A stretch of 64,000 nt of DNA from Caenorhabditis remanei (taxonomy: Eukaryota > Nematoda > Chromadorea > Rhabditida > Rhabditidae), in assembly GCF_010183535.1 (NCBI RefSeq), contig NC_071329.1:9424001-9488000 (forward strand), in the 5' to 3' direction. The position numbers and the translations under genes were made by a program. Below are positions 9,501-63,656 of this stretch, one piece after another. Positions within the stretch are counted from its first letter, which is position 1. Every line of letters starts with the position of its first letter. Below the pieces are notes generated by a model, which was given only the letters and a program-made list of their open reading frames with translations, was not told where the DNA came from and ran no database searches.

Positions 9501-12500
9501 TTATCTTTCGTGTTGTTCTGGCTTATTTGAGGAAGATGCAGATGAGGCGACTACTTCAGAACATGCAATGGCCCCCGTTATTCCACCATTGAATTATCCT
9601 AAGAGTGAGTTTTTATTTTATTTTAGACTATTCTTAGCATAAACTAGTTTTCAGGAACAGGACGAGATATGACTTGGTTCGATTCAAAATCTGTTCATGA
9701 CATGGCTCTTCTCAATCAAATTCGACAAATGGCGTTTTCTAACAGTATCGGAAAAGCTGTTTCTCAAATGGCTAGCGGTGCAGAGCATGCAAGAAATGTT
9801 GCAATCGCTATGGATGTCGGTACAGATGTGACTGTTCCTTCAGAATACATTCTTTCACATGTGGACACACTTGAACTTCTTATGCTCGGAATGTCAGCTT
9901 TAGGTCCAATGCAAAGTAAGTTTCTCCTTAAGAATGACATATATTAATTACTTTAAAGCTTTAGAATCTGGTATTGGAAACCAAATCGCATCCCAAAACA
10001 AATTCCTCAGCTATTTCCATCCATGGGGATTCCAAACTGCCAATGAAATAACTGAACTGGAAGCATCGGAATGGGTTGATTTGCTTGGAATTGTCACACC
10101 AACGCTCGAAGTTTCTATGAAACATGCCAGACATTTACCTGCAGAAGCCCCATCGACAGTCGAAGGACCAATGACTTGGAAGCAAATTGTGACGAAAGCC
10201 ATTCGAGGAAAACCATTATCGGATGATGATGAGGACTATTCATTAACAGAACCAGTACCTGCAGTGATGAGGGCACTGACCAAGGAAGCTATCAGAGCTG
10301 CACCGAATATTGAACAATATTCCGATCAGGCCTCGTTGGGTCCCATAGATCAGCCAAAGGATGTGATGTACATCACAATCATTCCAGATGATCCAACCAT
10401 CTATGAAAAAGCTGTTGAGTTTATGGACAATGTGACGGCCACTTATGAACGAATGAGATTGGGTCGCCATATACCATTCCCTGTTTCGACTGGAACTGCA
10501 ACTAAATTCCGTAAAGTACATGAAGAACAGCAGAATCAGTTTACGTTTTCTGAAAAAACACCGCAGCCTGAAAATGAAGAGAAAAAGGAAAAGGATCGTA
10601 AGGACTATGATGACTACTTTGGACGAGAACCAGTGGAAACTGATCTTGATTTTTGGATTAGAAGAGCAAAAAGAAAGTTCGAATCGTATGAAGATTTGAG
10701 AAAAACAGAAGATACAGCTATTCCTCCACCAGATCCATTTGATAAAGAGATGTCCAAAAATATCGTTTATCGGCACAGGATGAGCGGTTTTCCGTTCCGC
10801 GAGGATAGTTATTATGAACGTGAAGGAATTCTGAGAGTTGGAACACCATTAGAACGATCTAGACTTCAACATACTGTCACGAACACCCCAGAGTTTGAAA
10901 ACATGACTAGACATTTGAATGATAAGAATGGATTCGTCACCAAATTGCGATTATACTTACAACAAATGGAGGATTTGGTGCATCACGCTCTAATTGAAAA
11001 TGCTGAAGCTTTCGAGCGAACTGGCTATCGTTATCAGTTGGCTGTTGAAGGTCGTTTGAAGAGGAGACAACACAGGAAAGATATAAACGAAGAGTGGCTT
11101 AGATACGAGTCAGCGAAACTACTTGAAGACGAGGTAACAATACCTGTGCAACCTGAGGAGGCTGATCTCTGTACTGGGGTTGAGGTTGGAAATGAAGGGA
11201 GTGTTCCATGGGTGAATGACGAATTGCAAGAGAAGAAAGAATTGAAACAAAAGGAGAATGAACAGTATCCACCCGAAGGGCATCAAGCACCGTCCCCCGT
11301 TCCGGCTGGAATGATTCATATTCCTGAAACACGTGAGTTTCAAAAGATATTGTCTATTCTAAACAACTGTATTCAGTGTCGAAACAAGAAAGAATGGTCC
11401 AGCCATCACTCAATGATATCTTCGCGGACCCATCAACTGTTGCTCCAATGAATGCTCAGAACATATCATGGAAGAAAAGAGATACTCATGTCCCGAACCC
11501 GTTCCCATCGTCAAATCAACCTCCAGTCGCTTTCGAAGCTACTGGTTCACTTGATACAGATGCGATCTCAACACTTCCACATGTTATCGTTCTTTACGTT
11601 GTTAATCCGTTCTCGTACGGACCAGAGGGGCATTCAGCGATTCATATGAGAATTGCAATTCTAGCATTTATTCGTGCGTTCAATTCTATTATTGGTCGAC
11701 TGCCATTCCAAAAACGTCCTCAACTTCAATTAGAAATCATTGGCCTCGAGAGTTTGGATGACGTGGCAAAATCAATTCCTGATTATTTCAACGATCCAAA
11801 AGTTCCATTTGACATTCTTCATGATAATCAGATCAAGTTTGAACGAACTGCAGAAGCTGAACAGGCTGAGATTGTCCGATCATTATCAGTTGCCGTGTAT
11901 ACACATCCTCGTGTCTTCACACCCGATGTTTATAAATCAGTGTCAGCAAGATGCATGACTGCGTAAGTAAAACAAGTTTTTTAAAACATTTTCTTCTAAA
12001 ATTAAGACAGTTTGTAATGCTGAATTTTTCCATTTCCAGATTCGGTCCCGGAAGTCAAATCATCAATACCATCAACAACATTGAAAAGATAAATCAAGAT
12101 TCCTTCTTCCGAATGTCAAAACGATCGAAAATGGCGTTAGAAACTATCGATGGATTCAGGCATCCTGGAATGATGGCACCACAACAAATTGAGAAAAAGA
12201 ACTATATTGCATATCGAGTTCCTTCGAATATCCTTTGTCTGGCACCCCCTCCACCTGTTTACCAAATGGATGAAGACGGAAAACCAGTGTTAAATCAGTT
12301 GGATGAGCAAACACTTTTCATTTCATATTGTCTCGTTGGAGCGGATTTCCTTGTGGCTACAGCGACTGATGCTCAGGGAAAATTGATTGATAACTGTGTT
12401 GCAAATATCAAACCGAGAAGACAAAGAAATCAAGTGTATCGATATAGAAATAAAACTCAAATTCTAGATGGAATGGGCAAATTGTGGTCATTCATTTTGG

Positions 12501-13537
12501 GTGTAATGTCATCGGACATTAAGAATTGGAGACTCGTTGTTGGAAGACTTGGACGTATTGGACATGGAGAGTTCAGAGCGTGGACTCATCTCCTCAATAA
12601 AACTTCATTGCTTCGATATTCTGGAAGTCTGAAAGACATTTGTAGTGCTTGCCGAAGTATGCCAACAGCTGTCGGAACTCCAGCAATTCTGTCTGCATGT
12701 CTCATTACTCTTGAACCCGAACCAAGTATTCGTATTATGCCTGACTTCCAAGATCAATCGGCAACGACGAAGAAAAGTTATATATTCCAAACTCCAGGAG
12801 ACTTATCATGCACGCACATATTGACATTCCCAGTTGGAACTGAGATTAATGTGAGTTTTAAAACTTTTCCAGTAAAACTATTTCTACTTTTTTCAGCTCG
12901 AAGTACAAGATCAAACCGCCGATACGAAAGCCGATGAGAACTGGGATTTCAATGATTTAGATATTATGGAGGGTCTTGATGATGGAGATACCGAAATTAT
13001 GAAAGATCTTGGACTTGAAACTCCAAGTAGCGCAGCGATTCGTCAAAGTGGTGGAACTTCGATGTTCTTCAGTGAAGACTCTTCTTCGATTGAAATTCAA
13101 AATCAACCGCTTGCCTCTGGATACTATATCTCAACTGCACCAGCACCTGAACTCCCCAGTTGGTTCTGGGCGACGTGTCCATCTGCCAAAAGACATTCCC
13201 CGGTGCATCTTAAATCTTCGTTACATATCAATATCAGTGAAGTAAAGGTATCATCAAAAATCAAAATGACGGAGTTTAATATGTATCCTTCCAGAATGAC
13301 GATATTGCGATGGAATCAGCGAAAGAAAAAGACAAAGATAAGGAAAAAGAAGAGAAAGATGTCCATCCACTCGAATCACGTCAAACTGAAGAAGTTCTTC
13401 GACATGTACTCGAGTCATATAATGCTCTCTCGTGGCTTAATCTGAATCGCCAAACCGGAGAGCGTTACAGTTGTCTTCCGATTCATATCCAACATCTTTT
13501 GAGACTTTACCACAGCGTAGCTCGTCTTCTTGTCTAG
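3532..13537 (+). CDS. let-19: Mediator complex subunit 13 (LET-19/MDT-13)
   Basis: About twenty exons encode roughly 2,900 residues. MED13 links the CDK8 kinase module (MED12, CDK8, cyclin C) to core Mediator in the nucleus and mostly restrains transcription. The N-terminal MED13 domain is visible from exon 2 ([24 protein letters not shown], then VRFGRWF). A basic/acidic middle follows, then a Met/Gly/Gln-rich linker (about 8040-9010; runs of GQMGQMG and [10 protein letters not shown]). A Cys-rich block ([11 protein letters not shown]...CTCGFSAI, about 9290-9490) precedes the MID region and the C-terminal domain ([45 protein letters not shown]). It ends at TAG 13535-13537. The 5' end is unresolved: the frame is open back to an acceptor at 3531, but the first in-frame ATG is at 3632, so an upstream exon probably supplies the start. 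Length and domains match the C. elegans protein rather than the shorter human one. Confidence 0.96.
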
Positions 13538-14059: not shown

Positions 14060-15303
14060 TTAATTTGAGCAAATATCACGGTCAGCGCGGCAGTCAGCAT
14101 TCGGTGCAGCAAGGAACAATCTACCATTATGACAGACACATACTTGAGTCTGTGGACTGCCTCGTCCATCCGAACGAGCCAATTTCTCCATATAAATTGA
14201 TGAAGATTCAAGACGAATTTCTCCCTGAAAATAAGAAATACGGATTGCTTTACAATTTCGATTTGACCTGTTTTGATGAAATAGAAATATCCAACAATGA
14301 ATTGACAGAAACTTCTCCAGCAGCAGCGAGAATTTCAATATCTTGTGCAGCATCAACAGAAACACTTCTAGTTGGAGACTCTAAACGAAGTGGAGAATCT
14401 GGTTGTGGACGAACTGAAGATGTTTGAATTGCCCCTTCGAATACACTTCCTCCATCATCTGAGAAATAAAAATTACAAAATGTTCCATTCCAGTTTCAGA
14501 ATTACCTAAAATCCTCAGGTTCTCAAGTTTCAATCCGATCTCATCTGAATCCGCGAAAAAGAGCAATTTTTGATCTTCATCGAAAACTTCGAACCGTTCA
14601 CAAGTCACTTGGGCCTTCCCTTCTGGCATCAATGAGAATTTGGATGCCACGTCACCATTTGGTTTTCTTGCTTGGAGATTAACACCTCGGAATGAATCAA
14701 TTGTCAGAGTTTCTTCCTGAGAAATAGAATATTCAGGAATGACAGAAAATTTCGAAAAATAATGAATGAGTTCTACAAATAAGACATCAACTATGTTCTA
14801 TTTTGGAAAAGACTTACATCGAGAGTGCTCAGTTTCGAAAAATGAACAGGTCGATCGAATTGTGCTCTTCCTTCGACTCGAATTCCATCTTCTTCAATTT
14901 TCAGAGTTCCAATTCCATTCGGAGAGAAATCCAAAACTGAAATAATCCAAAATGTGAGGGAAAGATTCAATACAATTCCAATGGCAAGAATCAGAATGAA
15001 GAAGTAGAGAAATCGTTTTCTCCATCCGTAAATTCCAACTCTGGAATGAATTTATTTTCATAGAAATCTATCAATTTTCGTCAATTACCTATAAATATCA
15101 GCATCTGCGACTGGCTTAGTTGTCGAATGAATAACAGTTGTTTGTGATGGATATGCTTGAGAATGAGAATAAGAAGTTGGATATGTACTACTGACTGGTT
15201 GAACCATTGTCTGATGAGATACTCCTCGCGATAGACTTTGCTCATTTCGAGACCATACAGGTTCATCGGGTGGACCCATCGCATAAACAGGATAGCCTCG
15301 CAT
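14060..15303 (-). CDS. sgn-1: Delta/gamma-sarcoglycan
   Basis: Five exons (15303-15089, 15040-14818, 14716-14506, 14458-14268, 14224-14060) join in phase to 334 residues. Sarcoglycans are type II membrane glycoproteins of the dystrophin-associated complex in muscle. The signature GIYGWRKR lies just before one hydrophobic segment (FLYFFILILAIGIVLNLSL), followed by the beta-strand ectodomain (DFSPNGIG, EEDGIRVEG, RLESPTRSVSVDA). The terminal cysteine cluster CVCHNGRLFLA...C...DIC is typical of the delta/gamma branch. The Pro/Ser/Tyr-rich cytoplasmic tail starts MRGYPVYAMGPP. I chose ATG 15303 because length already exceeds the vertebrate proteins. An in-frame ATG at 15576 would add 91 low-complexity residues and is probably 5'UTR. 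Confidence 0.95.
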
Positions 15304-16684
15304 TTCGACAAGCCAATCGATGGAAGTATGGAATCGAGAGAGAGTCGTTGGCAAATGGAACAACGAGTGTAATAGGAGAGAAAGAGATGGGGAAAAGATT
15401 CGTTTGACTGAAAAGATGAAGAAACGGCCCGCCGTGGTGATGGCTCTTTCTCTTGTTGTAATAGATGGGTTCGTCAAAATAGATGACAAAGTATTTGACG
15501 TGTCAATGAAATTTGATAATGTTTGATGGGTGGTTTTCTTGTTTTGATTGATGTTTTTTGTTTCTGCATCCGGCATTTCGAAGATTTTGGAGTGGAAGTG
15601 GATCGGTGGATATTACATCTGGATTTAATTTGGAATCTATTATGGATTTAATTTGGATTTAATTTTGGAGTAAGAAATTTGTGATTTCATCTTCTAGAGG
15701 GGTTCAATGCAGGAAAACTAAAAAATAACTAAAAATAAATTAAATAAAATGAGGGTTGAAAATGAAATCTGAACATACAGCTCGGCAAAAACAGATGTTC
15801 TTTCAGTCAGTTCCAGGTAGTTTCTCGTGGTTAAGGGTTTATTTTATTTTATTTTGAAATACAATTAAAGAATCGTGAAAATGAGAATTAAATCAAATAC
15901 AACCAGTATAGTTCAGAATAATTAAAGTGGATGTGGTACCATTCAGCACAAAAATTGAAAGTTTTGAATTTTTTGCAAAAAATGTCGAATTTTCGATTAT
16001 GTTTTTAAATTTCGATCAAAAGACGAATGTATGTATATAGGATTCCTGACTATTTTTTATGAGAATTTCGTCAAAAAAGTGTGAAAAATATAATTCTACT
16101 GAAACACGTGTTTGATTGACAGTATTCATGTAATGGTTTCGAGAAATCTATTTTCCATTTTGAAGATCTTCATGGACTTAGGCTGATTGAGTGTATCTGT
16201 TCCAGAGTTCGTTGAATTTTCTATACTATGTTCCTGTTGTTCGAATACCTTTTCGTTTTAATAAATGAAACCAGAATAGCATATTTTTTTTGAAATTGCG
16301 TCATACCCTTCATGTTTTTGTAGTTCTTTGCAGATTTCAGCTAATTCACTTTTTCAGATGCGTCAATACCGTAGTTCTTCCTCTCTTCTTTGCCCCAATT
16401 TTCCAATTTAAGCTATTGTTTTCCTCATAAAATAATGGCAACCAATTGGTTTTTTTCTCACATGAATTGTTTCTCAATTCGAATACGAATCTCCATTGAC
16501 ACGAGACACATACATATTGCATTGATCAATAGAATTACATATGCTGTCTTCTTCTTTTTCTTTCTTTTTCTCTCTCGTTTCGGAAAATTATTCGGCGTTT
16601 CCATGTCACCACACTCTATCTCTTCATTCCGAAGCGTCTCTTTTTTTCTTTTTTGTTCCCAAACTCTTTCTCTCTAGCTCTTTT
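15304..16684. other. Intergenic region between sgn-1 and the ncRNA cluster
   Basis: Contains the probable sgn-1 5'UTR and promoter (to about 15.6 kb), then AT-rich DNA. From 16.53 to 16.68 kb there is a pyrimidine-rich plus-strand tract (many TTTCT and CTCTCT runs) of the kind found upstream of Caenorhabditis genes. No supported gene was found. Confidence 0.5.
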
Positions 16685-17136
16685 CCGTCGAGATGTCTGA
16701 CACTCTCTGTCTCTATCAACCCCGACCGCAAAAATCGACGAAGGCTTCAGTCGTGGCCTCTCGGGGCCCGGGGAAGGAGCCACGGCTGGCAGAGACCCTA
16801 AAATGGCCTCGTCTTCCTACTATTGTGAGTTTGCTCTTTTTTCTAACTCTAGTAATCAACTCATTTGTTTTCCAGAAGGAAGACCATTCCGTCTGCCCAA
16901 AGGTAGACAAAAGCATTTACGAATCCATTGGATCAATGGCGAATTGCTTTCAAAACACGTCATCTTGTTGTACGTGGCTTTCTGTACTATCGAGACCGTA
17001 ATCGAGCCGAGTGATGCAGTGATCACCTAACGGTAAGACTCATCTATTTCTGTTTTCCATAAAAAAAATAACTTCAGATCGGAACAGTTGGGAAATGAAC
17101 CAAAAAACTATCCGTATCGCGTGGATCCATTGGAAT

Positions 17137-17151
17137 GTCTGAGATTCAGAC
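17137..17151 (+). ncRNA. Hairpin A1 (AGATT loop)
   Basis: Perfect stem GTCTG/CAGAC with 5-nt loop AGATT, 40 nt upstream of hairpin B1 in the same inferred exon. Confidence 0.65.
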
Positions 17152-17191
17152 CCACGACCACGACTTTGATTCGCTTTTTTTCGCTTTTTAT

Positions 17192-17224
17192 CTTCGGGAG
17201 TTCAACGAATGGTCATCCTAGAAG
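17192..17224 (+). ncRNA. Hairpin B1 (AACGAATGGTCA loop)
   Basis: Stem CTTCGGGA / TCCT-A-GAAG (8 bp, one bulged A) closes a 16-nt loop GTTCAACGAATGGTCA. The loop is shared with four other sites in the cluster while the stem sequence is not. Confidence 0.75.
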
Positions 17225-17420
17225 AGCCTGTTAACCAGCAGCTGAAAAAGTAAGTTTATTCGAATTTCGAGTGTCTGCAACCCCATATCCGCTTCGTTTC
17301 AGCGCTTCAGCCGCCGCCACCCATTGCAATGTCTGAAACAAAGGACGGCAATGTTCATACCTACTAATTGGTTGAAGAAAACTGGACCCTATTAATTTTT
17401 TATTTTATTCTGCTATGAAA

Positions 17421-18896
17421 AGCATGCATAAATCTGTCCAGGGGGAAATCTGTTTTCTTTTTCTTTTTCACATCTTCTTAAGATTAGAATGATTCAGAGA
17501 AAAACAGAACAGTGAAAGTGTTCTTATCAACAAAAAATAATGATACCCACTCAGAGAATCGGCATTCCTTTTAGTACAACCCACTATTCACTTTGAACTG
17601 AAAAATATTACATCTGTCATAAAACGTCAACGATTCGTTTCCTGTGGTCGGATGCGTCTTTTTGTTCGCGTTTCGGAAAGAAAACGGCAAATGAAAAAGA
17701 AAAAAAAAGATTAATGGGAAAAAAGCCCCTTCGTTTCTATGGATTGTCAAGGAGATTCAATGGGAAAACGTATAGTGAAATGATGTTTTTCTTTTCGGAT
17801 GAAAGAAGGCTAGATTGGCGAATTTTCAAGAGAAAATAGAAAAGGGAATGAGCTGATTTCATCATTTTCTTACATGAGACGAATACTGAAACTTGAATTT
17901 TCAAATGAATAATCAAATCAATTTGAACTAGAATAAAAAACTATTGAGTCAGAACTTCGAAGATCACTACCGATTAGTTCAGAAAGATTTTTGACAGAGG
18001 AGGCTTGAATGATGGAAACAACTTAACTAAATTGTTAGGCTCCTGAAAAGACTGTCTGATAGCAGTTTCCTATGCAAAAGTTTCATACAAGTTGAAAATT
18101 CTCCATACTAGTGAGCGTGAAAACTCGAAAAGGTTTGCTTGGTTTTTCTGCAGAAGTTAAGTATTTCTCTTACAAGTCAAGTTCTCAATACCGTCAGTGT
18201 TTTCTGAGCACGAATAGAAAATGGAAAAACAGTTTTTTACTCAATTTCAAGCCTTCACAAAGTTATTTCCCCACGACAGCTTTCAAATACTTTCATCTTT
18301 TCTCATGTATCCGTTATTCATTATTTTGGATTTCCGGAGTTCTTTTTTCCTTTCCTTTGCAAGGGATTTATAGCTTCTACTGAGTAAAATGTATTCTTTT
18401 TTTTCCAATTAATATCCCAATTCTCTGTTTTCTTTCGCCTAAAATTTCTTTTCCAATCCAATAAATCTTCATGATTTAGCTTTTCCTGCCATTCTTCTTC
18501 TTCTTCAATTTCCTTCTTTCCAACTTCATCTCCCATAGAAATATCGAAAAATAGCCATCCTTTCCAGCCATGCTCTCTTTTTCTTTTCCTGCTTTTCACT
18601 ATTTCTCCTTCTTAGAAACACATCCCCATTCTCTTCTGTCTCTTCTTTCCAAACGTACACTTCTCCGCCCCTCACGACTTCAGCTCTCCCTTCTCGAAAC
18701 TCCGCCCACTTTTATCTAAAATCGATGCAGAAGCAGAGACCTGCTGCATATACGTCTCAGTTCTCTCTTCTCTCTCTTTCTTTTCCTCACTTGGCCTCCC
18801 AGCAGTCACTTTTTCGCTTTTGGCCAATTCATTTTTTCTCCCTTGCGCCTTCTTTTCTTACAAAATTATTTTCCAATCAATTATACATTTTCAGGT
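17421..18896. other. Spacer between ncRNA units 1 and 2
   Basis: AT-rich DNA without supported genes. The last 500 bases (18.4-18.85 kb) are pyrimidine-rich on the plus strand, like the region preceding unit 1, and include CTCCGCCC-type GC patches. This is a plausible promoter/5' region for unit 2. Confidence 0.45.
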
Positions 18897-19640
18897 AATT
18901 TCTCCTACCAATACGCTGAAACGGTAACATGCTGATTCGACGTAATTGGTTTCCAAATGTGTGATTATATCATCTGAATCCACATCCAACAAGGTTGTAA
19001 CCCTTGTCCCTCTCCTACTCTCCTCCTGCATCTTCAGCATGTGCTGACTTCGTGTCGTACTAATAAGTGAGTTTATTTTTTCAGTTTGGATTCTTTTTGC
19101 TCTCTAAGTTTTTCTTCTTTTCAATAAATTATCTATTTCAGGCACCCGGTTCACCCAAAAGAATAGTCAAGGCAGGGTTGCTGCTCACCCAAGTGGGACG
19201 TAGTGTAAAGCCAGAGAAATGGCACAAACGATCCCCCCCAACCTTCTAGTGTGTTCGAGAATTGTCGTAACACTATATCCAAATCCGAGCTTTATGGCTG
19301 AAACGGCAACGTATTGCTCAAAAAACCTCTCTAACTCATAACCTCGCTGAGTTTTGAGAAACCTCTTGCTCCGATTGACTTGCTCTGGTTAACTTCTAAT
19401 TGGCCATCTCATATCGGACACTTGAGTTTTTTTTTCTCCTGGAATTGTCAGTTTATTGCCTCCAACGTCCTCTTCATTATCAGGACGTGGAGAATGGCCA
19501 ACGGATTTCGCCCTCCACGATCCTCGATTTGTCACCGGAGTTTAACGAATGGTCATCCGGATGATGTATTTCCCGTTGCTACATTTTTTTTGGTCCCTAT
19601 GTTATTTTATGTTTCCAATAAATGTTCAACGCAAAAATTG
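18897..19640 (+). ncRNA. Structured spliced non-coding RNA, unit 2
   Basis: Two exons are inferred: 18897-19066 (after TTTTCAG; donor GTGAGT) and 19142 (after ATTTCAG) to about 19640. An AATAAA at 19617-19622 lies 57 nt past hairpin B2. The second exon holds a degenerate A-like hairpin (19251-19273, GTGTT...AACAC), and a long stem AGGACGTGGAG / CTCCACG-A-TCCT just before hairpin B2. No reading frame is convincing. Transcript ends are approximate. Confidence 0.6.
19535..19560 (+). ncRNA. Hairpin B2 (AACGAATGGTCA loop)
   Basis: Stem CCGGA/TCCGG closes the 16-nt loop GTTTAACGAATGGTCA, 57 nt upstream of an AATAAA signal. Confidence 0.75.
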
Positions 19641-20274
19641 TTATTCTAATTCAAACGAATTTCGCTGTGCACTTGGCTGAGTATCAAATGCATGCATAAT
19701 CGAAAGTAATGCTATTGATCGAGAGGGTCTCGTGGTCACCAGAAGACACGAGGCATTCGAATGTCTGGAACCTCTCATTCCGACACAGTCTCTTCTTGTT
19801 GGTAACAACATTCGTCTGAGTCTCTTTTCTATTGATTCGTTTGACTAGCTGAGCGAAGTGAAGGTTCTCTCATTGCATTGCTGTACGATTGGCCTTTTTC
19901 GTCATATCAGCTTTTTCACAAATTTTTCAAATAGTACTCATTTGCCGAAATGCTAAATTCCTCTTCTTAATGAGATTCAGAATTTAGAAAAACAGGGGGA
20001 GAACCTGCGATTCTGATTGAATCATCTTCTTTTCAATACTCCGTCTCTTTAGCAAAGAATCCGCGTAATCAATTCTCTTATTTTCAGACAAACGGTCTCT
20101 GCTTTAGGTATGAACCTATCGAGCTTTTCACTCGATGGTAAGTTAATCTCGCTCAATATCATTCTAGAATCAATGAATTCTGTTTTCAGAGCGTTTGCAA
20201 TGACTTTGAGTCATAATGAATGTTTCAACAACAATGTTGATCATTCAGCATCATCTTCACCGGTAAACCTCAAA

Positions 20275-20289
20275 GTTCGATAATCGAAC
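20275..20289 (+). ncRNA. Hairpin A3 (ATAAT loop)
   Basis: Perfect stem GTTCG/CGAAC with loop ATAAT, in the second exon of unit 3. Confidence 0.6.
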
Positions 20290-20393
20290 GTGGTTGAAAA
20301 TGCGGATGTCGTCGCTCACCATGTCCTTGTCTGATCGCTTTTTGATGGAGGTTTGAAGCGATCGGAGGACTCAGTCGAAGGACGGATTTCAAA

Positions 20394-20409
20394 GTTCGGG
20401 ATAACGAAC
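20394..20409 (+). ncRNA. Hairpin A4 (GGATAA loop)
   Basis: Perfect stem GTTCG/CGAAC with a 6-nt loop. It lies 47 nt upstream of the base of hairpin B3. Confidence 0.6.
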
Positions 20410-20456
20410 GGGAACGTGCCTTCAACCACCAAAATTCAACATCGAAGGTGGCTCAA

Positions 20457-20494
20457 CTCGGTTTGAAGAACAACGAATGGTCATTCAAACTGAG
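20457..20494 (+). ncRNA. Hairpin B3 (AACGAATGGTCA loop, 11-bp stem)
   Basis: The longest member of the set: CTCGGTTTGAA / TTCAAACTGAG (one G-T pair) closes the loop GAACAACGAATGGTCA. Confidence 0.8.
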
Positions 20495-20647
20495 GAAAAA
20501 TTCTCAAGTCTGGCTACGGAATGCCTTGGACTCCAAAATTTGAAATTAGAAAGTGAACATTTCAAGGACTTAATGATTATTTTGGACAAGGCGAGAGCCA
20601 ACTGGCAAGCCATCAAGCTCCTATCCTTCAATGGTACTTGATGATGG

Positions 20648-20771
20648 CGTGGTAACTACCACGATGGCATTTTTGAATGCCTCCTACTGGAACTCAACAA
20701 GAGTTCTCAGGATTTCCACAACTGATACAACAGTTGTATGCCTCAATATAGGCAATTGTTACGAGTAACAA
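20648..20771 (+). ncRNA. String of consecutive perfect hairpins
   Basis: In 124 nt: CGTGGT-AACT-ACCACG, GGCAT-TTTTGA-ATGCC, GAACTC-AACAA-GAGTTC, ACAACTG-ATACAA-CAGTTGT, TGCCT-CAATAT-AGGCA and TTGTTA-CGAG-TAACAA follow one another almost without gaps. This density is far above what unstructured AT-rich DNA gives. Confidence 0.75.
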
Positions 20772-21243
20772 ACTCGAACAAGGAGACGCCCAGATGGATA
20801 AGTAAGTGAAATTGTTGTCCTGAACCATCGTCTTATTGTCTTTCATTTTCAGACAATTTCATCCGGGAATTGAAGAAGATGGATTAAACGAAAGATCCAT
20901 GAGTTAGTGGATAGAAAGTCCCCATACTCACCAACACACAAACCCCCATCACCCTGTTTTCTATGAGATATGTAATATTATCTCATCGAAGACTATCCCA
21001 GCCACCGCCCTAGCAAAGGGACATGGCATCGGAAGAAGAGATACGAAGCAATAAGGTTTTGAATCCTGATTCAAGTAAGCGGTTTAAGAAAATAATAGCT
21101 TCTAGTATATCGTGTTTTCAGAAATGGAACGCTCCAACCCGATGGAGAAAGAACGCGGACGTCTTGGACGCCGATGCCAGCCTGTGATGTATCACGAATT
21201 GTCAGTTTTGACCTCTCACAGGACTGTAAAAGACATGGGGAAT

Positions 21244-21258
21244 GTTCGAGAATCGAAC
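21244..21258 (+). ncRNA. Hairpin A5 (AGAAT loop)
   Basis: Perfect stem GTTCG/CGAAC with loop AGAAT, in the fourth exon of unit 3. Confidence 0.65.
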
Positions 21259-21409
21259 CCAAATGTCTCAATTAATCAATTAATTCAATTGAATCGAAAT
21301 CGAAATCGAGAAGCGAGGAGGAACCGATAGTGGAAAGATGAATAAGCTCACTGTTCGGAAAATCCGCCAAAAAGGAGAAGGATTTCTTCCGGAATGGGAC
21401 CGACTGAAT

Positions 21410-21424
21410 ATCTGAGAATCAGAT
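21410..21424 (+). ncRNA. Hairpin A6 (AGAAT loop)
   Basis: Perfect stem ATCTG/CAGAT with loop AGAAT, 72 nt upstream of hairpin B4. Both halves differ from A5 in a compensated way. Confidence 0.65.
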
Positions 21425-21496
21425 CTGTCGGCTGATCCCCAAATGAGTCCGTAAATCTTAGTGGCTGCGACAGGCATCACTTGAGTTGGACAAGAC

Positions 21497-21524
21497 GAAG
21501 GAGAACAACGAATGGTCATCCTTC
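21497..21524 (+). ncRNA. Hairpin B4 (AACGAATGGTCA loop)
   Basis: Stem GAAGGA/TCCTTC closes the loop GAACAACGAATGGTCA, identical in loop to B3 but with an unrelated stem. Confidence 0.78.
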
Positions 21525-21950
21525 TACAACATACATTCGAATGGATTGAAGAAACTCATGCAAATCGTCAACGAGATTATTAAACTTATTGTCGATGACG
21601 ACTCACACTCTCCAAGCCATTGAATGTGCCACCACCCCAAATAGTTGAATGAACATTCGACTACACGCTGACAACAATGCCAGAAGTTTGGCTATGGTAA
21701 TTTTCAGAGTGTCCATGAAGCATTATCAATGCATATTTTCAGATTGAATCCACAAGGACTCAACTCAGTTGAACCCGGCCGCCAATCAACGCAAATGCCG
21801 TTTGCACACAATTCCGCGAGAAGCAGATATCTCAACAGGACCATTTGAAAATGAATTCAACTTGACATGTTTTAATTGAAAGTCTTTACTTTTGATGACT
21901 CCAATGTTTATAGTTTTCCTGTTCGAAATAAACGCTTTTCGAAGCACACA

Positions 21951-22644
21951 CACACCAACAAATTATTGTCTGTTGAGCACACTTTAAAACAGAAAATGTC
22001 GAAGAGATGATAGAGTACAAAGCTGTGACACAAGTTTAAGAATCTGGCTCCATTCCGAACGTGAAGCATTTACTTTCAGATTCTCCCAAGAACTAAACGG
22101 CCTCTCATCAAAAACCGTTTGAATCTTACAATCTTGTCATCGAACCTTCAATTCTGATATTTGCGTCCGACAATCCGATGTGTTAATTTGAAATGTTTCA
22201 AATGATCTATGATTTCCCCTCGAGTCCGCATTTGCGTCTGTAAAATGTTTCTTCAGGCAAATGCCCTTGAAGCTTCCATTTCCTGGCATATACTATGAAT
22301 AATCAAATTTGCATGAGCGTAATTGTGCCGCCTATCGTACTAGAATGACCACTCGGGTCTCCATAATCTTCCGATTGTGTTTGCTGAGGGCAGATTGATG
22401 TAAATAGGAACTATGATTGTCTGAGTCTCCTGGGCCACTACACTATATCATTAGACACCTGACAACTGTCCACAAGATAGTCCAGTTGACCTCTTCTTCT
22501 TCCCTCTTTCTCCCTTCTTTTCTCCCCGTTTCCCTTCCATTCTACTCATTATTCTTTTCTGTTAACCTCCGATAGAGCTAGCTTATTTTCGTATTTTCTT
22601 CACTTTTCATTGCGAAAACTAATTCTATTTTTATGAAATTTCAG
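21951..22644. other. Spacer between ncRNA units 3 and 4
   Basis: AT-rich, no supported gene. A pyrimidine-rich plus-strand tract at about 22.49-22.56 kb resembles those before units 1 and 2. Confidence 0.4.
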
Positions 22645-22977
22645 ACTTCAAACTTGGGTGATGTCTTCCTAAGACAATCCTCAAACGTCTTGAAAGACTC
22701 AAACGAAAGGATAAATCCAAAATATTCGAGTCTAATAAGACAGTTCTGAACTTGTTGGCATGCGTTTTCTCCCTGCTGCCTTCGATCTTCTTTGCTCCAC
22801 AATTTGCCTCGTTCTTGCAGCATCAAAGAAAAGTTTTCTTGCAGCATCGAAGAAAAGTTCAGGTTGGTTTTGATACGAATTTCGAACAAAATCCATCTCC
22901 AAGACATTCGAGTAATTTCCTATTTTTTTTCAGAACCATATTGACCCAGCGTCAATCATCAAAATATCGAATTCAAA

Positions 22978-22992
22978 GTTTGAGAATCAAAC
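22978..22992 (+). ncRNA. Hairpin A7 (AGAAT loop)
   Basis: Perfect stem GTTTG/CAAAC with loop AGAAT. Confidence 0.62.
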
Positions 22993-23345
22993 GGATCGAT
23001 TATCTGCGGAGTTGAGTTCGGCCGCACGAATACATTGTAATCTGAGAAGTTACAAACCAGTATAGACTCAATTTAAGAATATGTCATGTTTGGTGTAAAA
23101 TCTAATCTTCCTGCCATTCTGAAGTATATTTGAAACATTTTAACCGTATGCGTGTGTCTCCTTCTTCATCTTACAAGAAAATTCTAGGATATTGCCTTCC
23201 AGTTCCTTTTCTAATGGCTCAGTATAGTAGTTTTTTGTCTAGGTATACAGTATAATTTCAAGTACAGTATGTCTTTTTGTTTCCAGATAAGCTATCACTT
23301 CATTTAAGTAGATTAGTAGAATATTTCTTTCGGGTCATTTGTAAA

Positions 23346-23360
23346 GTCTGAGAATCAGTC
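23346..23360 (+). ncRNA. Hairpin A8 (AGAAT loop, one mismatch)
   Basis: Stem GTCTG/CAGTC pairs at four of five positions around loop AGAAT, 24 nt upstream of hairpin B5. Confidence 0.5.
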
Positions 23361-23384
23361 ACAAGTGAATCCAATCAGTATAGT

Positions 23385-23414
23385 AGCCGGAGGTCAACGA
23401 ATGGTCATTCGGCT
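23385..23414 (+). ncRNA. Hairpin B5 (AACGAATGGTCA loop)
   Basis: Stem AGCCGGA/TTCGGCT (7 bp, one G-T) closes the loop GGTCAACGAATGGTCA, about 108 nt upstream of AATAAA. Confidence 0.77.
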
Positions 23415-23550
23415 TCCCCTTCCCCCAATTTCTCATTGTCAAATTGATTCCTTTCCCCGCTCTGTCCCTCATGATCACTTTATTTCTTTTGTTCCATCTC
23501 GACTTTTTTTTTCAAAATGCGAATAAACGTTCCAATTGCGATATCATGTT

Positions 23551-24403
23551 TCGTTAGTCAAAGTTTCAGAATCGAACCAATATTCTCGATAGTATTCAAA
23601 GAAAGTTAGCTAAGGATCGGTTTCCAGGAAATATGGATTTGAATTGAACGACAGAAACAGATAATGTGTAGATACGTAAACAGTTTAAAACTTTCGTTGC
23701 TTCACCAAATAAGAACTGCCAGTACCATCAGGATTAGAATGCACTTACGCTCTTGTTTCTGTTTTGTTCTGATTATCTGCCAAGGAACTCAGATGATGTG
23801 TATTCTGTGGGTCAGATAGTATGAGACGGTACTGCTGAGTTCTAATTCCTACTTGTTTTGGCATGGGAAAGCTCTGTTGTGGTAGCGAACCATCGTGTTT
23901 TGAAATTATATAATTCGAGGTTCAATGAGATCTTTTTTGGAATCGTGAAATCTAGCTTTTCTGACAGCATTATTCATCTTACTAGTCTGTTTCAGGTAAT
24001 ATCAAGCTCTTTCCCACAAGAGAGTTCAATGAAACTTCCTCTCACAAAACCTCGAGATCTATGTGAGAAATGCAATCTCTCTGAACTCTCATCTGAAAAC
24101 CTAAAAGAGATCTTTGTCCCAGAAGCTCCCCCTCTACCAAAAAGTGGTTCATACATCGAGAACCACCCGCGTTGTTCATTCATCGGTTTTTGTGCTCTTT
24201 ACCATCCAGTTCACTTTTTTCTCGCCTTCTCGTAGTCACTTTTCAATTATTCATGGGCACTTCACTTCCTCTCACCAAGTCTATTACTTCCTCTTGATAG
24301 TTTTCTCATGGGAAATATAGATTTGCAAAGCGAAAAGTCATTCTCAAAGTTTATGTACAAAAAAAGAAAGAGAGGAGTCGATGCATAGGAAAATGAAATT
24401 GAA
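23551..24403. other. Spacer after the ncRNA cluster
   Basis: Holds a 125-codon frame (23858-24235) and a TCTCACA/TGTGAGA stem near 24.04-24.07 kb. It may be a further exon of the ncRNA cluster or nothing; I could not decide. Confidence 0.3.
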
Positions 24404-24819
24404 TTATTTTTTCTTCTTTCCAAAACATCCACCCATCATTGAGTAACCACATCCACCTGAAAGAAGTTATAGATTAAAAAACAAGAGAACAGGTTTTGAA
24501 ATACGGAAAACTCACCGTATCCTCCGCCAAACATTCCATATCCACCGTATCCGAGACCGTATCCACCCATTCCATATCCTCCAAAACCACCGTATCCACC
24601 GTAACCTAAACCATAACTTCCTCCAAAAAAGCCTCCTCCGTATCCTCCGCCACAGCCCATGCCTAAATGAAGTGGGCAACTGACAAAGAAGCTAACAAAA
24701 AATGAAAAATTCAAAAAGTTACCTAATCCACCGCCATATCCACCAAATCCGAAACCACAAGATTGAATAATTGTGGGTAGAAAGAAGAGAATAGAAAGAA
24801 GAAGAAATGAAGAGTTCAT
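24404..24819 (-). CDS. Gly/Tyr-rich secreted peptide
   Basis: Three exons (24819-24723, 24662-24516, 24456-24404) join in phase to 98 residues. A signal peptide (MNSSFLLLSILFFLPTIIQS) is followed by GGYGG-type repeats (GYGLGYGGYG, GYGMGGYG) with a few cysteines and a short Lys-rich tail (GKKK). It resembles the glycine-rich secreted proteins and the YGGYG antimicrobial-like peptides of Caenorhabditis, which are typically epidermal or pharyngeal and often stress-induced. The cysteines distinguish it from the nlp/cnc antimicrobial group. It lies just downstream of the ncRNA cluster on the opposite strand. Confidence 0.87.
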
Positions 24820-25216
24820 GTTTCTGGTTGCTCAGAATGTTTATTGAGAAGCCATTGCCTTTTATGGTAACATTGGGGGAAGAACTAGATTCCAAAAGAG
24901 CTCTTCAAGGGGCACGACTTCTTTCTATTCTAGAAAGCAATTGCAAATATTTGTGCGACAGTTTTCGGAAGAAAGAAGTCAAAATAACAAGTCGACAGTG
25001 TATTCAATATTTATATTTATTTTTGTCATTTTTGACCCGTCATTCAAACAAATGAGACAAAAAGAGTGAAGAGGAAGCACAGGCAAGCTGAATATTAAGG
25101 AACAAATGAGAAGTGGAGAGACCCAATTGGAATGAGAGAGAGCGAGTGGATGACCCGAAAATTATGGAAAAATTAAGATGAAAGAGGTAGAAGGATAAAT
25201 ATTACAGAGAAAATGA
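24820..25216. other. Spacer between two minus-strand genes
   Basis: Promoter space of the Gly-rich peptide gene and 3'UTR of the next minus-strand gene. No other feature is seen. Confidence 0.5.
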
Positions 25217-33835: not shown

Positions 33836-36800
33836 ATGAAGACGAACTATATTTTATTCCTTTTTGTACTTGGAGTCTATCTTGTGGAATCTCAACAGGT
33901 AACTTACTTTTCTTTCTAGATTTTTAGGAGTTTCTGCTAGAATTTCATTTTTCACGATGGCCCTCTACTCTTCGTTTCATTCACAAACATAGTTCTAGCT
34001 CTGATTGGTAACAAAAACAGCTTGCAAGTATTCCACAACGGATACCAGATTTACATCCTACATTTAACCAAGACCAGTGTTTGACACACTCCATCTATTT
34101 CACTCCAGTCTGCCATAAATTTAATAGGTTTTCAAAAGTTTATATATCCTGTAAACGTTGGAGAATGTTCACTTGATACCAGTTAGTCTAGAAAAAAGAT
34201 CAATCGCAACTTTCCAGTTCCCATTTCCTAGTTTCCCATTTCCTAACTAGTAAGCCGAAGTTTTTATTCAATGTTCTGTTCTCTCTTCCAAAAATTAAAA
34301 TCTGAACATTCCCCATGTACTTAGACCGTATCCTCCCAGTCTGACCCTTTGCCAAATGTGTTCCTTTCCGAAAGTCTCGCCATCATTTTCAAGTACATCA
34401 GATCTCATTTCGTCCAGTCGTCTCATTTCTGGGTTCCGCCATCATTGACACTTTCTCCCTCGTTCTTCACACAAACACAAAAACAAACAAACCAGATGTC
34501 ATTAGATCAAACACTAAATATTTGTTGAATTATCACGTATAATATATATTATTTCTTGTTCCAGAGCTTGATAACGCGAGCGAAAAGGCAATGTCCGTGT
34601 GCACAACTGTCCCAGAAGTCGAAATGTAACTGTTATCCGATTGGAGGGGGAATGCAAAGATGTAAATGTTCGAATGAACCACAATCCAGTTCATGCTCAT
34701 GTGCCAATAAAGTAGAGATTCTGAATTGACGACAGCTAAGACAATTCAACATTTTCAGGCTCAAACATCAGTTTGTCAGCCACAATGTCAGAAGTCTTGT
34801 GTAGATTCCTGCACGAGAAACTCCCATCAACCACAGATTTTGTGTGATAAAACGTGTCAGTTCACATGCAACAAAGCCTGTACTCCATCATCCAGCAGCT
34901 CATCTTCATCTAGTTTCCCTCCAATCAAGGTGATTCAGATTGATTAGGATTCTTCAACTTGAAGTATTTTTCATTAAGGTTGTGGTCAATCAACAAACAA
35001 AAGCCTCTCAATGTCCGCAAGCTTGCGCTCAATCCTGTAGCAACAGTTGTACAACTCAACCGAACAAGTCGACTTGCATCAATATGTGCTTGAAATCCTG
35101 TGAACCAACTTGTATTCAAGCGGCTGTCTCTATTAATGTCAAGGAATTTATGCGTACTTCGGTAGAAATTTGGAATAGAATAGAGATTGAAAGTAATTGT
35201 TGAATTTCAGACTACGACCGCTGCTCCAGTCAATGCATGTGTTCCTGCTTGTCAACCAACTTGTGATGCCCAATGCATTGATGTAATGAAACGATACGAA
35301 GTGATTATTCAGAAGTTGCCCGTCGTTCAACAATGTCCTTCTCAATGTCAACCAACCTGCTCTCCACAATGTATTCAATCAGTGGCAGTTTCCATTCAAA
35401 CGACAGTTCAACCAACAACTGCTTCCTGTATTCCTGCTTGTCAACCTTCGTGTACTCCACAATGTGTTCAAGCAGTTACAACTACCACTGAAACTTGTAT
35501 TCCAGCTTGTCAACCAGCTTGTCAACCACAATGTGTTGAGAGACAGCTTCAAATCCAGATCGTTACTGCAGGAACAACAAGAGCACCAGAGACTTGTATT
35601 CCTGCTTGTCAACCAGCATGTCAGCCACAATGCGTCTATCAATACCTATCGTCTGGAATCTCAACTGTTCCACCAGTCACTAAAATCTGTATTTCCGTTT
35701 GTCAACCTGCGTGTGATCCAGGATGTGTTGCCATCTACACAACATCTCCAACAACTCCAGCTCCACTTCAATGTGTCTCTCAATGTCAGCCAGCATGTCT
35801 TCCATCTTGTACTGACACCTTCACAACGACCATCTCAATACCAAAACAATGTGTTCCTGAATGCCAGCCAGCATGTGAAACCAAGTGCATTGTGGCACAA
35901 ATTGTTCTGAAAATCAAGAGTAGTTATCAACAACAAACTCAACAATACTCTCCACCGGCAGCCTCGTGTGTCCCACAATGTCAACCATCTTGCACTCAAG
36001 AATGTGTTTCTGCTCAACCAAATTTCGCAGTTCAAATCAAAATGATTGATGATTCGACGACTACAACTCCATCACCACAATGTATTCCACAATGTCAGCC
36101 GTCTTGTGAACAACAATGCATTCAGACTTACAAAATTCAAATTCAACAAATGAATGCTCAACAGAATCAACAACGTCAATACAATTGTGTTCCAGCATGT
36201 CAGCCAGCTTGTGAGCAATCGTGTATTCAATCTCAATACCAAGTAACTATTCAACAATCTTATTCGAAAGTGAATCAAGGAAACAGCTGTCCATCGGCAT
36301 GTCAACCGGCCTGCGAACCTCTTTGTGTACAACAAATCACTGTTCAAACAACCATTCCGATCACAAAGAGCTGTGTTCCTCAATGCCAACCGGCATGCTC
36401 TCAAGAATGTGTTCAACAGGTAATCATTAGAAAGATCTAGAGATGACATAATGCCAAAACTTCTACAGGCTACCTTCTCAATCTCAATTCCAATGACCAC
36501 TGCAGCTCCATCATGTTCTCCACAATGTCAACCAGCTTGTGATCCACAATGTATCAGTTTCACTCTGAAACTTCCAGCAGTCACTACTCCAACTCCATCT
36601 TCTTGCCAACCGCAATGTCAACCAGCTTGTCAGCCATCTTGTGTTGAAACCTACACTTTCACTCTTCCAATGAGTGACCAAAGTTCTAAACAATGTGCTC
36701 CAGCTTGTCAACCATCTTGTGACTCCAAATGTATTCAGAATTATCAATTCGAGATTGTGATTCCACAGGTATAATGCTCCTATAATTGTTGAGTATTCAA

Positions 36801-62304: not shown

Positions 62305-62600
62305 CTCAGGGAATTTTAGGCGAGGTTTCGGCGCCTTGCCGGCATTTTGCCTCTATTTTCGGCGAATTGCCCTCAATTTGGGCAGGTTGCCCACTTGGCG
62401 AGGGTTGGGCAAGAGTTGGGCAAGGGTGGGGTGGAAGAAGTGGGGGTGTGCGTGAGGATGGAGTAGGGCAAGTTGCCCATTTGTAGGGCAATTCGCCCAC
62501 TTTTTAAACATGCGCTCTACTGCACTCTGAAAATCATCAACTTTTTGCTGCGTCATTTATTATTTTAATTTATTCGTTTTAAATACACTATTCTATCAAA
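62305..62600. mobile_element. 296-bp repeat element, copy 1
   Basis: Runs from CTCAGGGAATTTTAGGCG to ATTCTATCAAA. Rich in GGGCAA and TTGCCC patches. The reverse complement, apparently identical over all 296 bases, occurs at 63361-63656. Its 60-70 codon frames are repeat artefacts. Confidence 0.85.
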
Positions 62601-63360: not shown

Positions 63361-63656
63361 TTTGATAGAATAGTGTATTTAAAACGAATAAATTAAAATA
63401 ATAAATGACGCAGCAAAAAGTTGATGATTTTCAGAGTGCAGTAGAGCGCATGTTTAAAAAGTGGGCGAATTGCCCTACAAATGGGCAACTTGCCCTACTC
63501 CATCCTCACGCACACCCCCACTTCTTCCACCCCACCCTTGCCCAACTCTTGCCCAACCCTCGCCAAGTGGGCAACCTGCCCAAATTGAGGGCAATTCGCC
63601 GAAAATAGAGGCAAAATGCCGGCAAGGCGCCGAAACCTCGCCTAAAATTCCCTGAG
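63361..63656. mobile_element. 296-bp repeat element, copy 2, at the palindrome centre
   Basis: Inverted copy of 62305-62600, located exactly between the two 342-nt arms as the spacer of the palindrome. Confidence 0.85.

What the first reader, a model, noticed from the sequence alone, without database searches (positions are those of the whole stretch)
16685..23577. Clustered family of structured, spliced non-coding RNAs
Four adjacent plus-strand units with canonical introns, three of them with AATAAA, have no credible coding frame but share two hairpin types. The B hairpins keep a 12-nt loop core while their stems change completely and still pair, and the A hairpins do the same on a smaller scale. 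Compensatory change between copies is the hallmark of selection on RNA structure. The only known relatives I can think of (sbRNA, SmY, SL RNAs, snoRNAs) have different sizes and motifs, so this may be a new nematode lncRNA family acting through a protein or RNA that recognises AACGAATGGTCA.
Basis: partly seen in the sequence, partly recalled or inferred. Interest (0 to 1): 0.93.

Follow-up and report, generated by a model that had tools for sequence, protein, structure and literature searches.

The report
Nematode RNA genes with repeated hairpins
Four neighbouring, apparently spliced genes in a nematode seem to make non-coding RNAs that share two small folded shapes, kept by matching changes on both sides of their stems while most other sequence has diverged.

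Summary
Five B hairpins share a 16-nt loop (GNNYAACGAAUGGUCA, 13 positions invariant). Their stems differ yet pair: own arms rank first of 120 permutations, and 5 of 7 stem pairs change on both sides. The A hairpins are not simple stem-loops. Each has a variable outer stem, a 3-nt 5' bulge (AAA/AAU), an inner stem and usually a triloop. Outer arms rank first of 5040 permutations. A model from unit 3's four copies recovers three copies in two other units. A stem-blind search adds an eighth with a different inner stem. An A-type hairpin, one of them tentative, lies 31-82 nt before each B core. The plus strand has nine intron-like splice pairs, the minus strand none. Spliced ORFs are no longer than chance, though a codon test was inconclusive for two units. 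Exact A and B patterns were found nowhere else in the 130-Mb genome; no Rfam family matches. Best reading: lncRNA genes whose repeated A-A-B module presents conserved bulge and loop bases to a protein or RNA partner. Transcription, partners and orthologues were not testable here.

The parts
16690..17430 (+). Unit 1; predicted exons 16690-16824, 16876-17032, 17078-17249, 17303-about 17430; no AATAAA, both ends uncertain
   Evidence: splice signals; intron 17033-17077 read by eye
18895..19640 (+). Unit 2; predicted exons 18895-19066, 19142-19640; AATAAA at 19617
20088..21945 (+). Unit 3; predicted exons 20088-20137, 20190-20801, 20853-21074, 21122-21696, 21743-21945; AATAAA at 21927; two modules
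   Evidence: spliced fold z = -9.3
22645..23545 (+). Unit 4; predicted exons 22645-22862, 22934-23545; AATAAA at 23522
   Evidence: spliced fold z = -0.04
17192..17224 (+). B1 hairpin
   Evidence: own short excerpt folds no better than shuffles (z +0.96, lower stem cut off), closing pairs 0.96-0.97 in the exon ensemble
19532..19564 (+). B2 hairpin
   Evidence: stem probability 0.46-0.47 in the exon ensemble
20457..20494 (+). B3 hairpin, 11-bp stem
   Evidence: z -4.94
21497..21524 (+). B4 hairpin
23385..23414 (+). B5 hairpin
   Evidence: stem probability 0.39-0.40 in the exon ensemble
16910..16950 (+). A10 hairpin: bulge AAU, inner stem CCAUUG/CAAUGG, triloop GAU
   Evidence: stem-blind search; fold; pair table
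17120..17162 (+). A1 hairpin: bulge AAU, triloop GAU
20266..20295 (+). A2 hairpin: bulge AAA, triloop UAA
   Evidence: outer pairs at most 0.06 in the exon ensemble
20378..20422 (+). A3 hairpin: bulge AAA, six-base loop GGAUAA
   Evidence: flush outer pairs at most 0.03 in the exon ensemble
21231..21268 (+). A4 hairpin: bulge AAU, triloop GAA
21397..21433 (+). A5 hairpin: bulge AAU, triloop GAA
22966..23000 (+). A6 hairpin: bulge AAA, triloop GAA
   Evidence: held-out recovery; flush outer pairs at most 0.02 in the exon ensemble
23332..23372 (+). A7 hairpin: bulge AAA, triloop GAA, one inner mismatch
   Evidence: held-out recovery
19486..19519 (+). Tentative A11 just before B2: 7-bp outer stem, bulge AAU, 3-bp inner stem, 11-nt loop
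   Evidence: only place on either strand of the window with 7 or more Watson-Crick outer pairs by that descriptor; a rival fold exists; 10.7 and 13.1 bits
17322..17353 (+). Tentative A-like hairpin (A9) in the last exon of unit 1
   Evidence: fold; not listed by the models

Best explanation
Four adjacent transcription units make spliced, mostly polyadenylated non-coding RNAs. Together they carry five B hairpins, each preceded 31-82 nt upstream by an A-type hairpin (the one before B2 tentative); four of the five modules have two A hairpins before B. The stems mainly hold the shape; selection keeps what they present: the AAA/AAU bulge and small loop of A, and the 16-nt loop of B. The likeliest mechanism is a multivalent RNP scaffold or decoy: one or two RNA-binding proteins dock on A and B elements, one or two modules per transcript, with fast-evolving spacer RNA between. 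Shown: sequences, comparative structures, two-sided change, splice signals, no exact copies found elsewhere in the genome. Inferred: transcription, protein partners, scaffold or decoy role.
For: Two-sided stem change in B and A; held-out recovery of copies between units; A10 found without stem sequence; fixed order A before B in 5 of 5 modules, one tentative; all A1-A7, A10 and B1-B5 inside predicted exons; 9 to 0 strand bias of intron-like pairs; ORFs within chance; unit 3 strongly structured, z = -9.3; exact motifs found only in this cluster.
Against: No expression or orthologue data. Unit 4 is no more structured overall than shuffles (z = -0.04), and unit 3's minus strand scores as well as its plus strand. 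In whole-exon ensembles the outer pairs of A2, A3, A6 and the stems of B2, B5 are not dominant. G-U against A-C pairs do not settle the strand. The count of further pair types in A is not above shuffles (186 of 500). The codon test is inconclusive for units 3 and 4. No partner is known; docking is inferred from the pattern of conservation alone.
Confidence: 0.58

Rival explanations
1. The B loop is an antisense guide: its 12 invariant bases pair with a target RNA and the stem merely displays them; A hairpins bind a helper protein.
For: A long, unvarying 12-base loop core in 5 of 5 copies is what a pairing site would look like.
Against: Longest Watson-Crick complement of the core in two SL1, two U2 and two U6 genes read in gene orientation is 5, 4 and 6 nt, no better than shuffles. 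The 12-mer itself is not clearly enriched genome-wide beyond this cluster (16 other places against 9 for the reversed control). rRNA could not be tested (no answer) and mRNAs were not tested.
Confidence: 0.2
2. The units are mRNAs for small proteins, or translation starts at the AUG inside the B loop, and the hairpins are cis elements.
For: Each B loop holds an AUG (codons M-V-I); the five ORFs average 34.4 aa against 18.7 for 76 other AUGs, reached by 770 of 20000 random draws. The codon test is raised for units 3 and 4.
Against: The five peptides share only M-V-I; 6, 6, 10, 35 and 7 AUGs lie upstream of the loop AUG; the longest spliced ORFs are within chance in 4 of 4 units; pairing, not codons, is kept in the stems.
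Confidence: 0.1
3. Hairpin precursors of small RNAs.
For: Many short hairpins in unit 3; a weak mir-3524-like match at 16709-16796 (23.5 bits on minus, 23.2 on plus; gathering score 99).
Against: A and B stems are short for Drosha or Dicer substrates (recalled rule); the conserved letters lie in loops and bulges rather than in a stem arm; no Rfam match at gathering score.
Confidence: 0.04
4. DNA-level elements: a mobile or repeated sequence whose hairpins act as single-stranded DNA.
For: A conserved loop with variable stems also occurs in single-strand DNA origins and mobile elements (recalled).
Against: No exact copy of either motif was found elsewhere in the genome; a unit 3 exon stretch finds only itself; all supported elements lie in predicted exons. 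G-U pairs do not decide.
Confidence: 0.03
5. Chance resemblance.
For: Copies are few (5 and 8) and paralogous; permutation ranks treat them as exchangeable.
Against: Ranks 1 of 120 and 1 of 5040, hold-out recovery, genome-wide uniqueness.
Confidence: 0.01

Closest known systems
lep-5 lncRNA of C. elegans (PMC6606027, passages read)
   Same: Nematode lncRNA whose stem-loops matter and which is proposed to act as an RNA scaffold for proteins (LEP-2, LIN-28).
   Different: [quoted passage not shown] here repeated A-A-B modules over four adjacent units. Sequences were not compared: none of lep-5 was at hand.
LIN-41 response element (PMC5908797, passages and abstract read)
   Same: Short stem with a loop of exactly three bases, several copies per RNA, read by shape.
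   Different: Key closing pair U-A is absent: A hairpins close with A-U (6) or G-C (1) and one has a six-base loop.
roX RNAs with roX boxes, Drosophila (recalled, no call)
   Same: Fast-evolving lncRNAs that keep short repeated structured boxes.
   Different: Different motifs, phylum and chromosome setting; function here unknown.
TAR-type bulged hairpins (recalled, no call)
   Same: Outer helix, 3-nt bulge on the 5' side, short upper helix, small loop.
   Different: Bulge here is AAA/AAU, the loop is mostly a triloop, and the element is repeated in apparent cellular RNA genes.

Membership tests
LIN-41 response element | loop of exactly three bases | tested here: met
   7 of 8 supported A hairpins have a triloop; A3 has six loop bases; feature from PMC5908797
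LIN-41 response element | U-A pair next to the loop (-1/+1) | tested here: not met
   A-U in 6, G-C in 1 of 7 triloop copies; U-A has by far the strongest effect in PMC5908797
LIN-41 response element | A or G at loop position III | tested here: inconclusive
   A in 5 of 7 triloops (GAA four times, UAA once), U in 2 (GAU)
lep-5 | terminal stem-loops and central zipper; sequence relationship | not testable with these tools
   no lep-5 sequence held; description only
   0 matches in the whole window; 4 weak matches at E up to 5 in 16400-23900, the best 23.5 bits against a threshold of 99
Caenorhabditis telomerase RNA | TAAGCC template | tested here: not met
   no TAAGCC and no GGCTTA on the plus strand of 16500-23700; feature from PMC12921731, passages read
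Caenorhabditis telomerase RNA | lies in an nmy-2 intron, H/ACA boxes | not tested
   features from PMC12921731; neighbours here are Med13-like and sarcoglycan-like
Multivalent RNP scaffold lncRNA (works like) | repeated structured docking sites kept by compensatory change | tested here: met
Multivalent RNP scaffold lncRNA (works like) | transcribed RNA bound by proteins | not testable with these tools

The most novel reading that the evidence does not exclude
Dedicated protein or RNA partners would dock on it, and it would evolve like roX boxes: stems free to change, presented letters fixed, the rest rewritten. The four adjacent genes would be old tandem duplicates that differ in module dose.
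Probability: 0.5. Interest if true: 0.85.

Novelty: new variant of a known kind. Interest (0 to 1): 0.74.

Why it matters
Few lncRNAs have structure backed by compensatory change, and neighbouring paralogues that keep a fold while losing most other sequence are rare. Here two motifs are defined almost to the base, with positions that may change (stems) and positions that hardly do (AAW bulge, small loop, B loop). That gives ready baits and controls for pull-down, clear mutants in a genus with good genetics, and a structure model to find orthologues that sequence search may miss.

Tried and rejected
Kissing loop between B loops: the self-duplex of the core (-1.6 kcal/mol) is beaten or matched by 1610 of 2000 shuffles.

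Internal target of the B core: longest complements 8, 5, 7 and 6 nt in units 1-4; the 8-mer of unit 1 is reached by 10 of 300 shuffles and is not shared.

Pairing of the B core with SL1, U2 and U6: read some of these loci on the wrong strand or off the gene; redid six genes in gene orientation and found at most 6 nt, no better than shuffles.

LIN-41 element: wrong closing pair.

Strand from G-U against A-C pairs: B 3 to 1, A outer stems 4 to 4, undecided. Orientation rests on splice signals.

The copy at 23558-23577 was dropped before the A counts (7 rows). With it included, one search gave 0 of 1882, 1 of 1766 and 0 of 1828 derangements at or above the observed sum under three flank limits; without it 0 of 1854 in each.

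MAFFT misaligned A10, so its pairs were tallied in a fixed frame by script.

Shared words outside A and B: 8 ten-mers shared by two modules against 0.66 in mononucleotide shuffles; 7 of the 8 link unit 2 and the second half of unit 3, four of them parts of one 13-mer. Weak sign of common descent, not pursued.

Other loci in this genome: in 62 loci fetched by motif, none had a match to both models at E up to 5; best 22.3 bits for each model.

Literature: ten searches listed no paper whose title or abstract start describes this family. The loop-word search listed three papers, judged unrelated from title and abstract start and not opened. Only open-licence papers are held, so this does not show that the family is unpublished, and C. 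elegans annotation could not be consulted.
Full report
SETTING. The window is bases 9424001-9488000 of contig C2 of a 130.5-Mb genome in 186 contigs. The contig sizes match what I recall of the Caenorhabditis remanei PX506 chromosomes (recall, no call). SL1-like genes, below that family's cut-off, fit a nematode; U2 and U6 genes are found above cut-off. Neighbours are a Med13-like gene on plus (Pfam MID_MedPIWI in the ORF at 9904-11448 and Med13_C in that at 11936-12934; Med13 chains), a sarcoglycan-like gene on minus (14384-15051) and a glycine-rich ORF on minus (24436-24831; no Pfam match).

B HAIRPINS. The core AACGAATGGTCA lies at 17204, 19544, 20472, 21507 and 23396. The aligned 40-mers keep 13 of 16 loop positions in all five, while the stem columns vary. 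At the fixed geometry 88.6% of 35 cells pair (shuffles 64.1%), 5 of 7 pairs have two-sided change, and sliding the partner by 1 to 3 columns lowers pairing to at most 62.9%. With bulges allowed the own arms score 96 against at most 57 in 44 derangements, and rank 1 of 120 permutations. The 12-mer has 21 places in the genome, 5 here, with 9 for the reversed control. With stem-closing letters the exact pattern has 5 places, all here, among 113 at up to 3 mismatches (control 25). The model built from the five gives them 45.6-47.9 bits and the next place in the window 11.6; the five match it by construction.

A HAIRPINS. Seven copies found by sequence (inner stems at 17137, 20275, 20394, 21244, 21410, 22978, 23346) align over 39 columns. 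RNAalifold, given that alignment without a structure, predicts outer stem, 3-nt 5' bulge and inner stem; 9 of 12 pairs show two-sided change. On the named structure 79.6% of 98 cells pair against 61.7% in shuffles and at most 50.0% when slid. Pairs with two-sided change are 10 of 14 against a mean of 7.3 (15 of 500 shuffles reach it), cells 24 against 10.2 (0 of 500); the count of further pair types is not above shuffles (186 of 500). Outer arms rank 1 of 5040 permutations. Exact AAWGTYYGAKAWTCRRAC has 4 places in the genome, all here, among 75 at up to one mismatch against 50 for the reversed control. A model built only from unit 3's copies (A2-A5) ranks A7 (E 3e-6), A6 (1.2e-5) and A1 (0.012) next, before anything else in 64 kb, where the next place has 0.58.

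STEM-BLIND SEARCH. Asking only for an AAW bulge, an inner stem of at least 6 pairs, an NAW triloop and one flush outer pair gives 10 places on plus and 4 on minus, two of those overlapping. Six of the ten lie at 16925-22978; five are known A copies. The sixth, A10 at 16925 in exon 2 of unit 1, has bulge AAU and triloop GAU like A1, and an inner stem that differs from all other copies at 5 of 6 pair positions. In a fixed frame all 6 inner pairs then vary among the eight copies; 41 of 42 cells pair in the seven copies with 6-bp stems, a value reached by 4 of 5040 permutations, the true one included. The models do not list A10 at E up to 10 and 5, so it rests on architecture. A second descriptor (AAW bulge, at least 7 Watson-Crick outer pairs, at least 3 inner pairs) has one place on both strands, 19496, just before B2. 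Its inner stem is short, G-U-tolerant versions of the descriptor have other places, and a rival fold exists, so it is tentative.

ORDER. From the end of the inner stem to the B core the distances are 52 (A1-B1), 31 (A11-B2, tentative), 62 (A3-B3), 82 (A5-B4) and 35 nt (A7-B5), from the coordinates above. Four of five modules have two A copies before B: A10-A1-B1, A2-A3-B3, A4-A5-B4 and A6-A7-B5. A10 and A1, and A6 and A7, are farther apart than the others. Between modules, blastn finds short matches mostly at the B and A elements.

GENES. The scan finds 9 intron-like pairs of 46-75 nt on plus and none on minus in 16.6-23.6 kb. Eight fit the units; 20652-20710 lies inside an exon of unit 3. The intron 17033-17077 was read by eye (boundaries printed). 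The first acceptors of units 2, 3 and 4 (18894, 20087, 22644) have no strong unused donor near upstream and could be trans-splice sites (inference). AATAAA ends units 2, 3 and 4. All eight supported A and five B elements lie in predicted exons; the rejected copy at 23558-23577 does not. Longest spliced ORFs are 53, 49, 68 and 41 aa against shuffle means of 44, 49, 58 and 47. The codon test gives 0.030, 0.080, 0.269 and 0.192 for the sense strands of units 1-4 and up to 0.284 antisense; five coding stretches give 0.24-0.43 on their better strand and five non-coding ones 0.01-0.16. It does not exclude stops and is inconclusive for units 3 and 4.

STRUCTURE OVERALL. Spliced units 1-4 fold at z = -2.7, -2.7, -9.3 and -0.04 on plus; on minus -1.9, -2.5, -9.1 and -1.0. 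Six intergenic stretches, both strands, range from +1.3 to -2.2, four stretches of coding genes from +2.4 to -0.3. Of 14 short excerpts 13 have negative z, B1 +0.96 with its lower stem cut off. In whole-exon ensembles the A inner stems and bulges are mostly firm, but the flush outer pairs of A2, A3 and A6 are at most 0.06 and the B2 and B5 stems are at 0.4-0.5. Single-sequence folding supports the elements unevenly; the comparative evidence is the stronger part.

MECHANISM. In both elements stems change and what they present does not: bulge AAA or AAU in 8 of 8 A copies, triloop GAA, UAA or GAU in 7 of 8, and 13 of 16 B-loop positions. That is the mark of a recognised shape with presented letters. 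Several sites per transcript and locus suggest multivalent docking (inference). lep-5 is a nematode lncRNA proposed to be a protein scaffold, with stem-loop mutants that lose function (PMC6606027, passages read). LIN-41 is a nematode protein that reads triloops by shape (PMC5908797, passages and abstract read), but its key U-A closing pair is absent here. The partner is unknown. The guide rival stays open because rRNA and mRNA targets were not tested; SL1, U2 and U6 gave nothing above shuffles.

NOVELTY. No Rfam family matches and ten literature searches listed no paper that describes the family (calls in Tried and rejected). Structured scaffold-type lncRNAs are a known kind; this module and cluster I could not file under any known family. 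Whether C. elegans annotation already holds an orthologue is unknown to me.

LIMITS. One genome, no expression data, no orthologues. Copies are paralogous and few, and permutation ranks treat them as exchangeable. E-values of home-made models are rough. Genome pattern counts are as the tool gives them, with its own warnings about lower bounds.

Noticed in passing
genome-wide, e.g. G000:C1:2052900-2052921 (L024) and G000:C1:3235873-3235894 (L028): A dispersed repeat family carrying GCACATTAACGAATAGTCATCC and close variants, seen as near-matches to the B pattern on several chromosomes. It gets low scores from the B model.
   Followed up: partly
62306-62556 and 63405-63655: Identical 65- and 67-aa ORFs on opposite strands about 0.9 kb apart, so an inverted repeat of some 250 bases, possibly the ends of a mobile element.
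   Followed up: no
35184-36440 (+): A long ORF of repeated CQPACQPQC-type cysteine motifs, Pfam C_tripleX.
   Followed up: partly
19442-19454 and 21196-21208: The 13-mer GAATTGTCAGTTT is shared by unit 2 and the second half of unit 3; at 21196 it follows CAC, giving a near-copy of the B core (2 mismatches) without a B stem that I could see.
   Followed up: partly
20190-20801 (+): This exon of unit 3 is densely structured (z = -6.9 plus, -6.1 minus) with many short near-perfect hairpins besides A2, A3 and B3; their conservation is unknown.
   Followed up: partly
G000:C3:5546286-5566702 and contigs C42, C46, C54, C98: Tandem SL1-like genes at about 0.79- and 0.93-kb spacing, all below the Rfam SL1 cut-off.
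   Followed up: no
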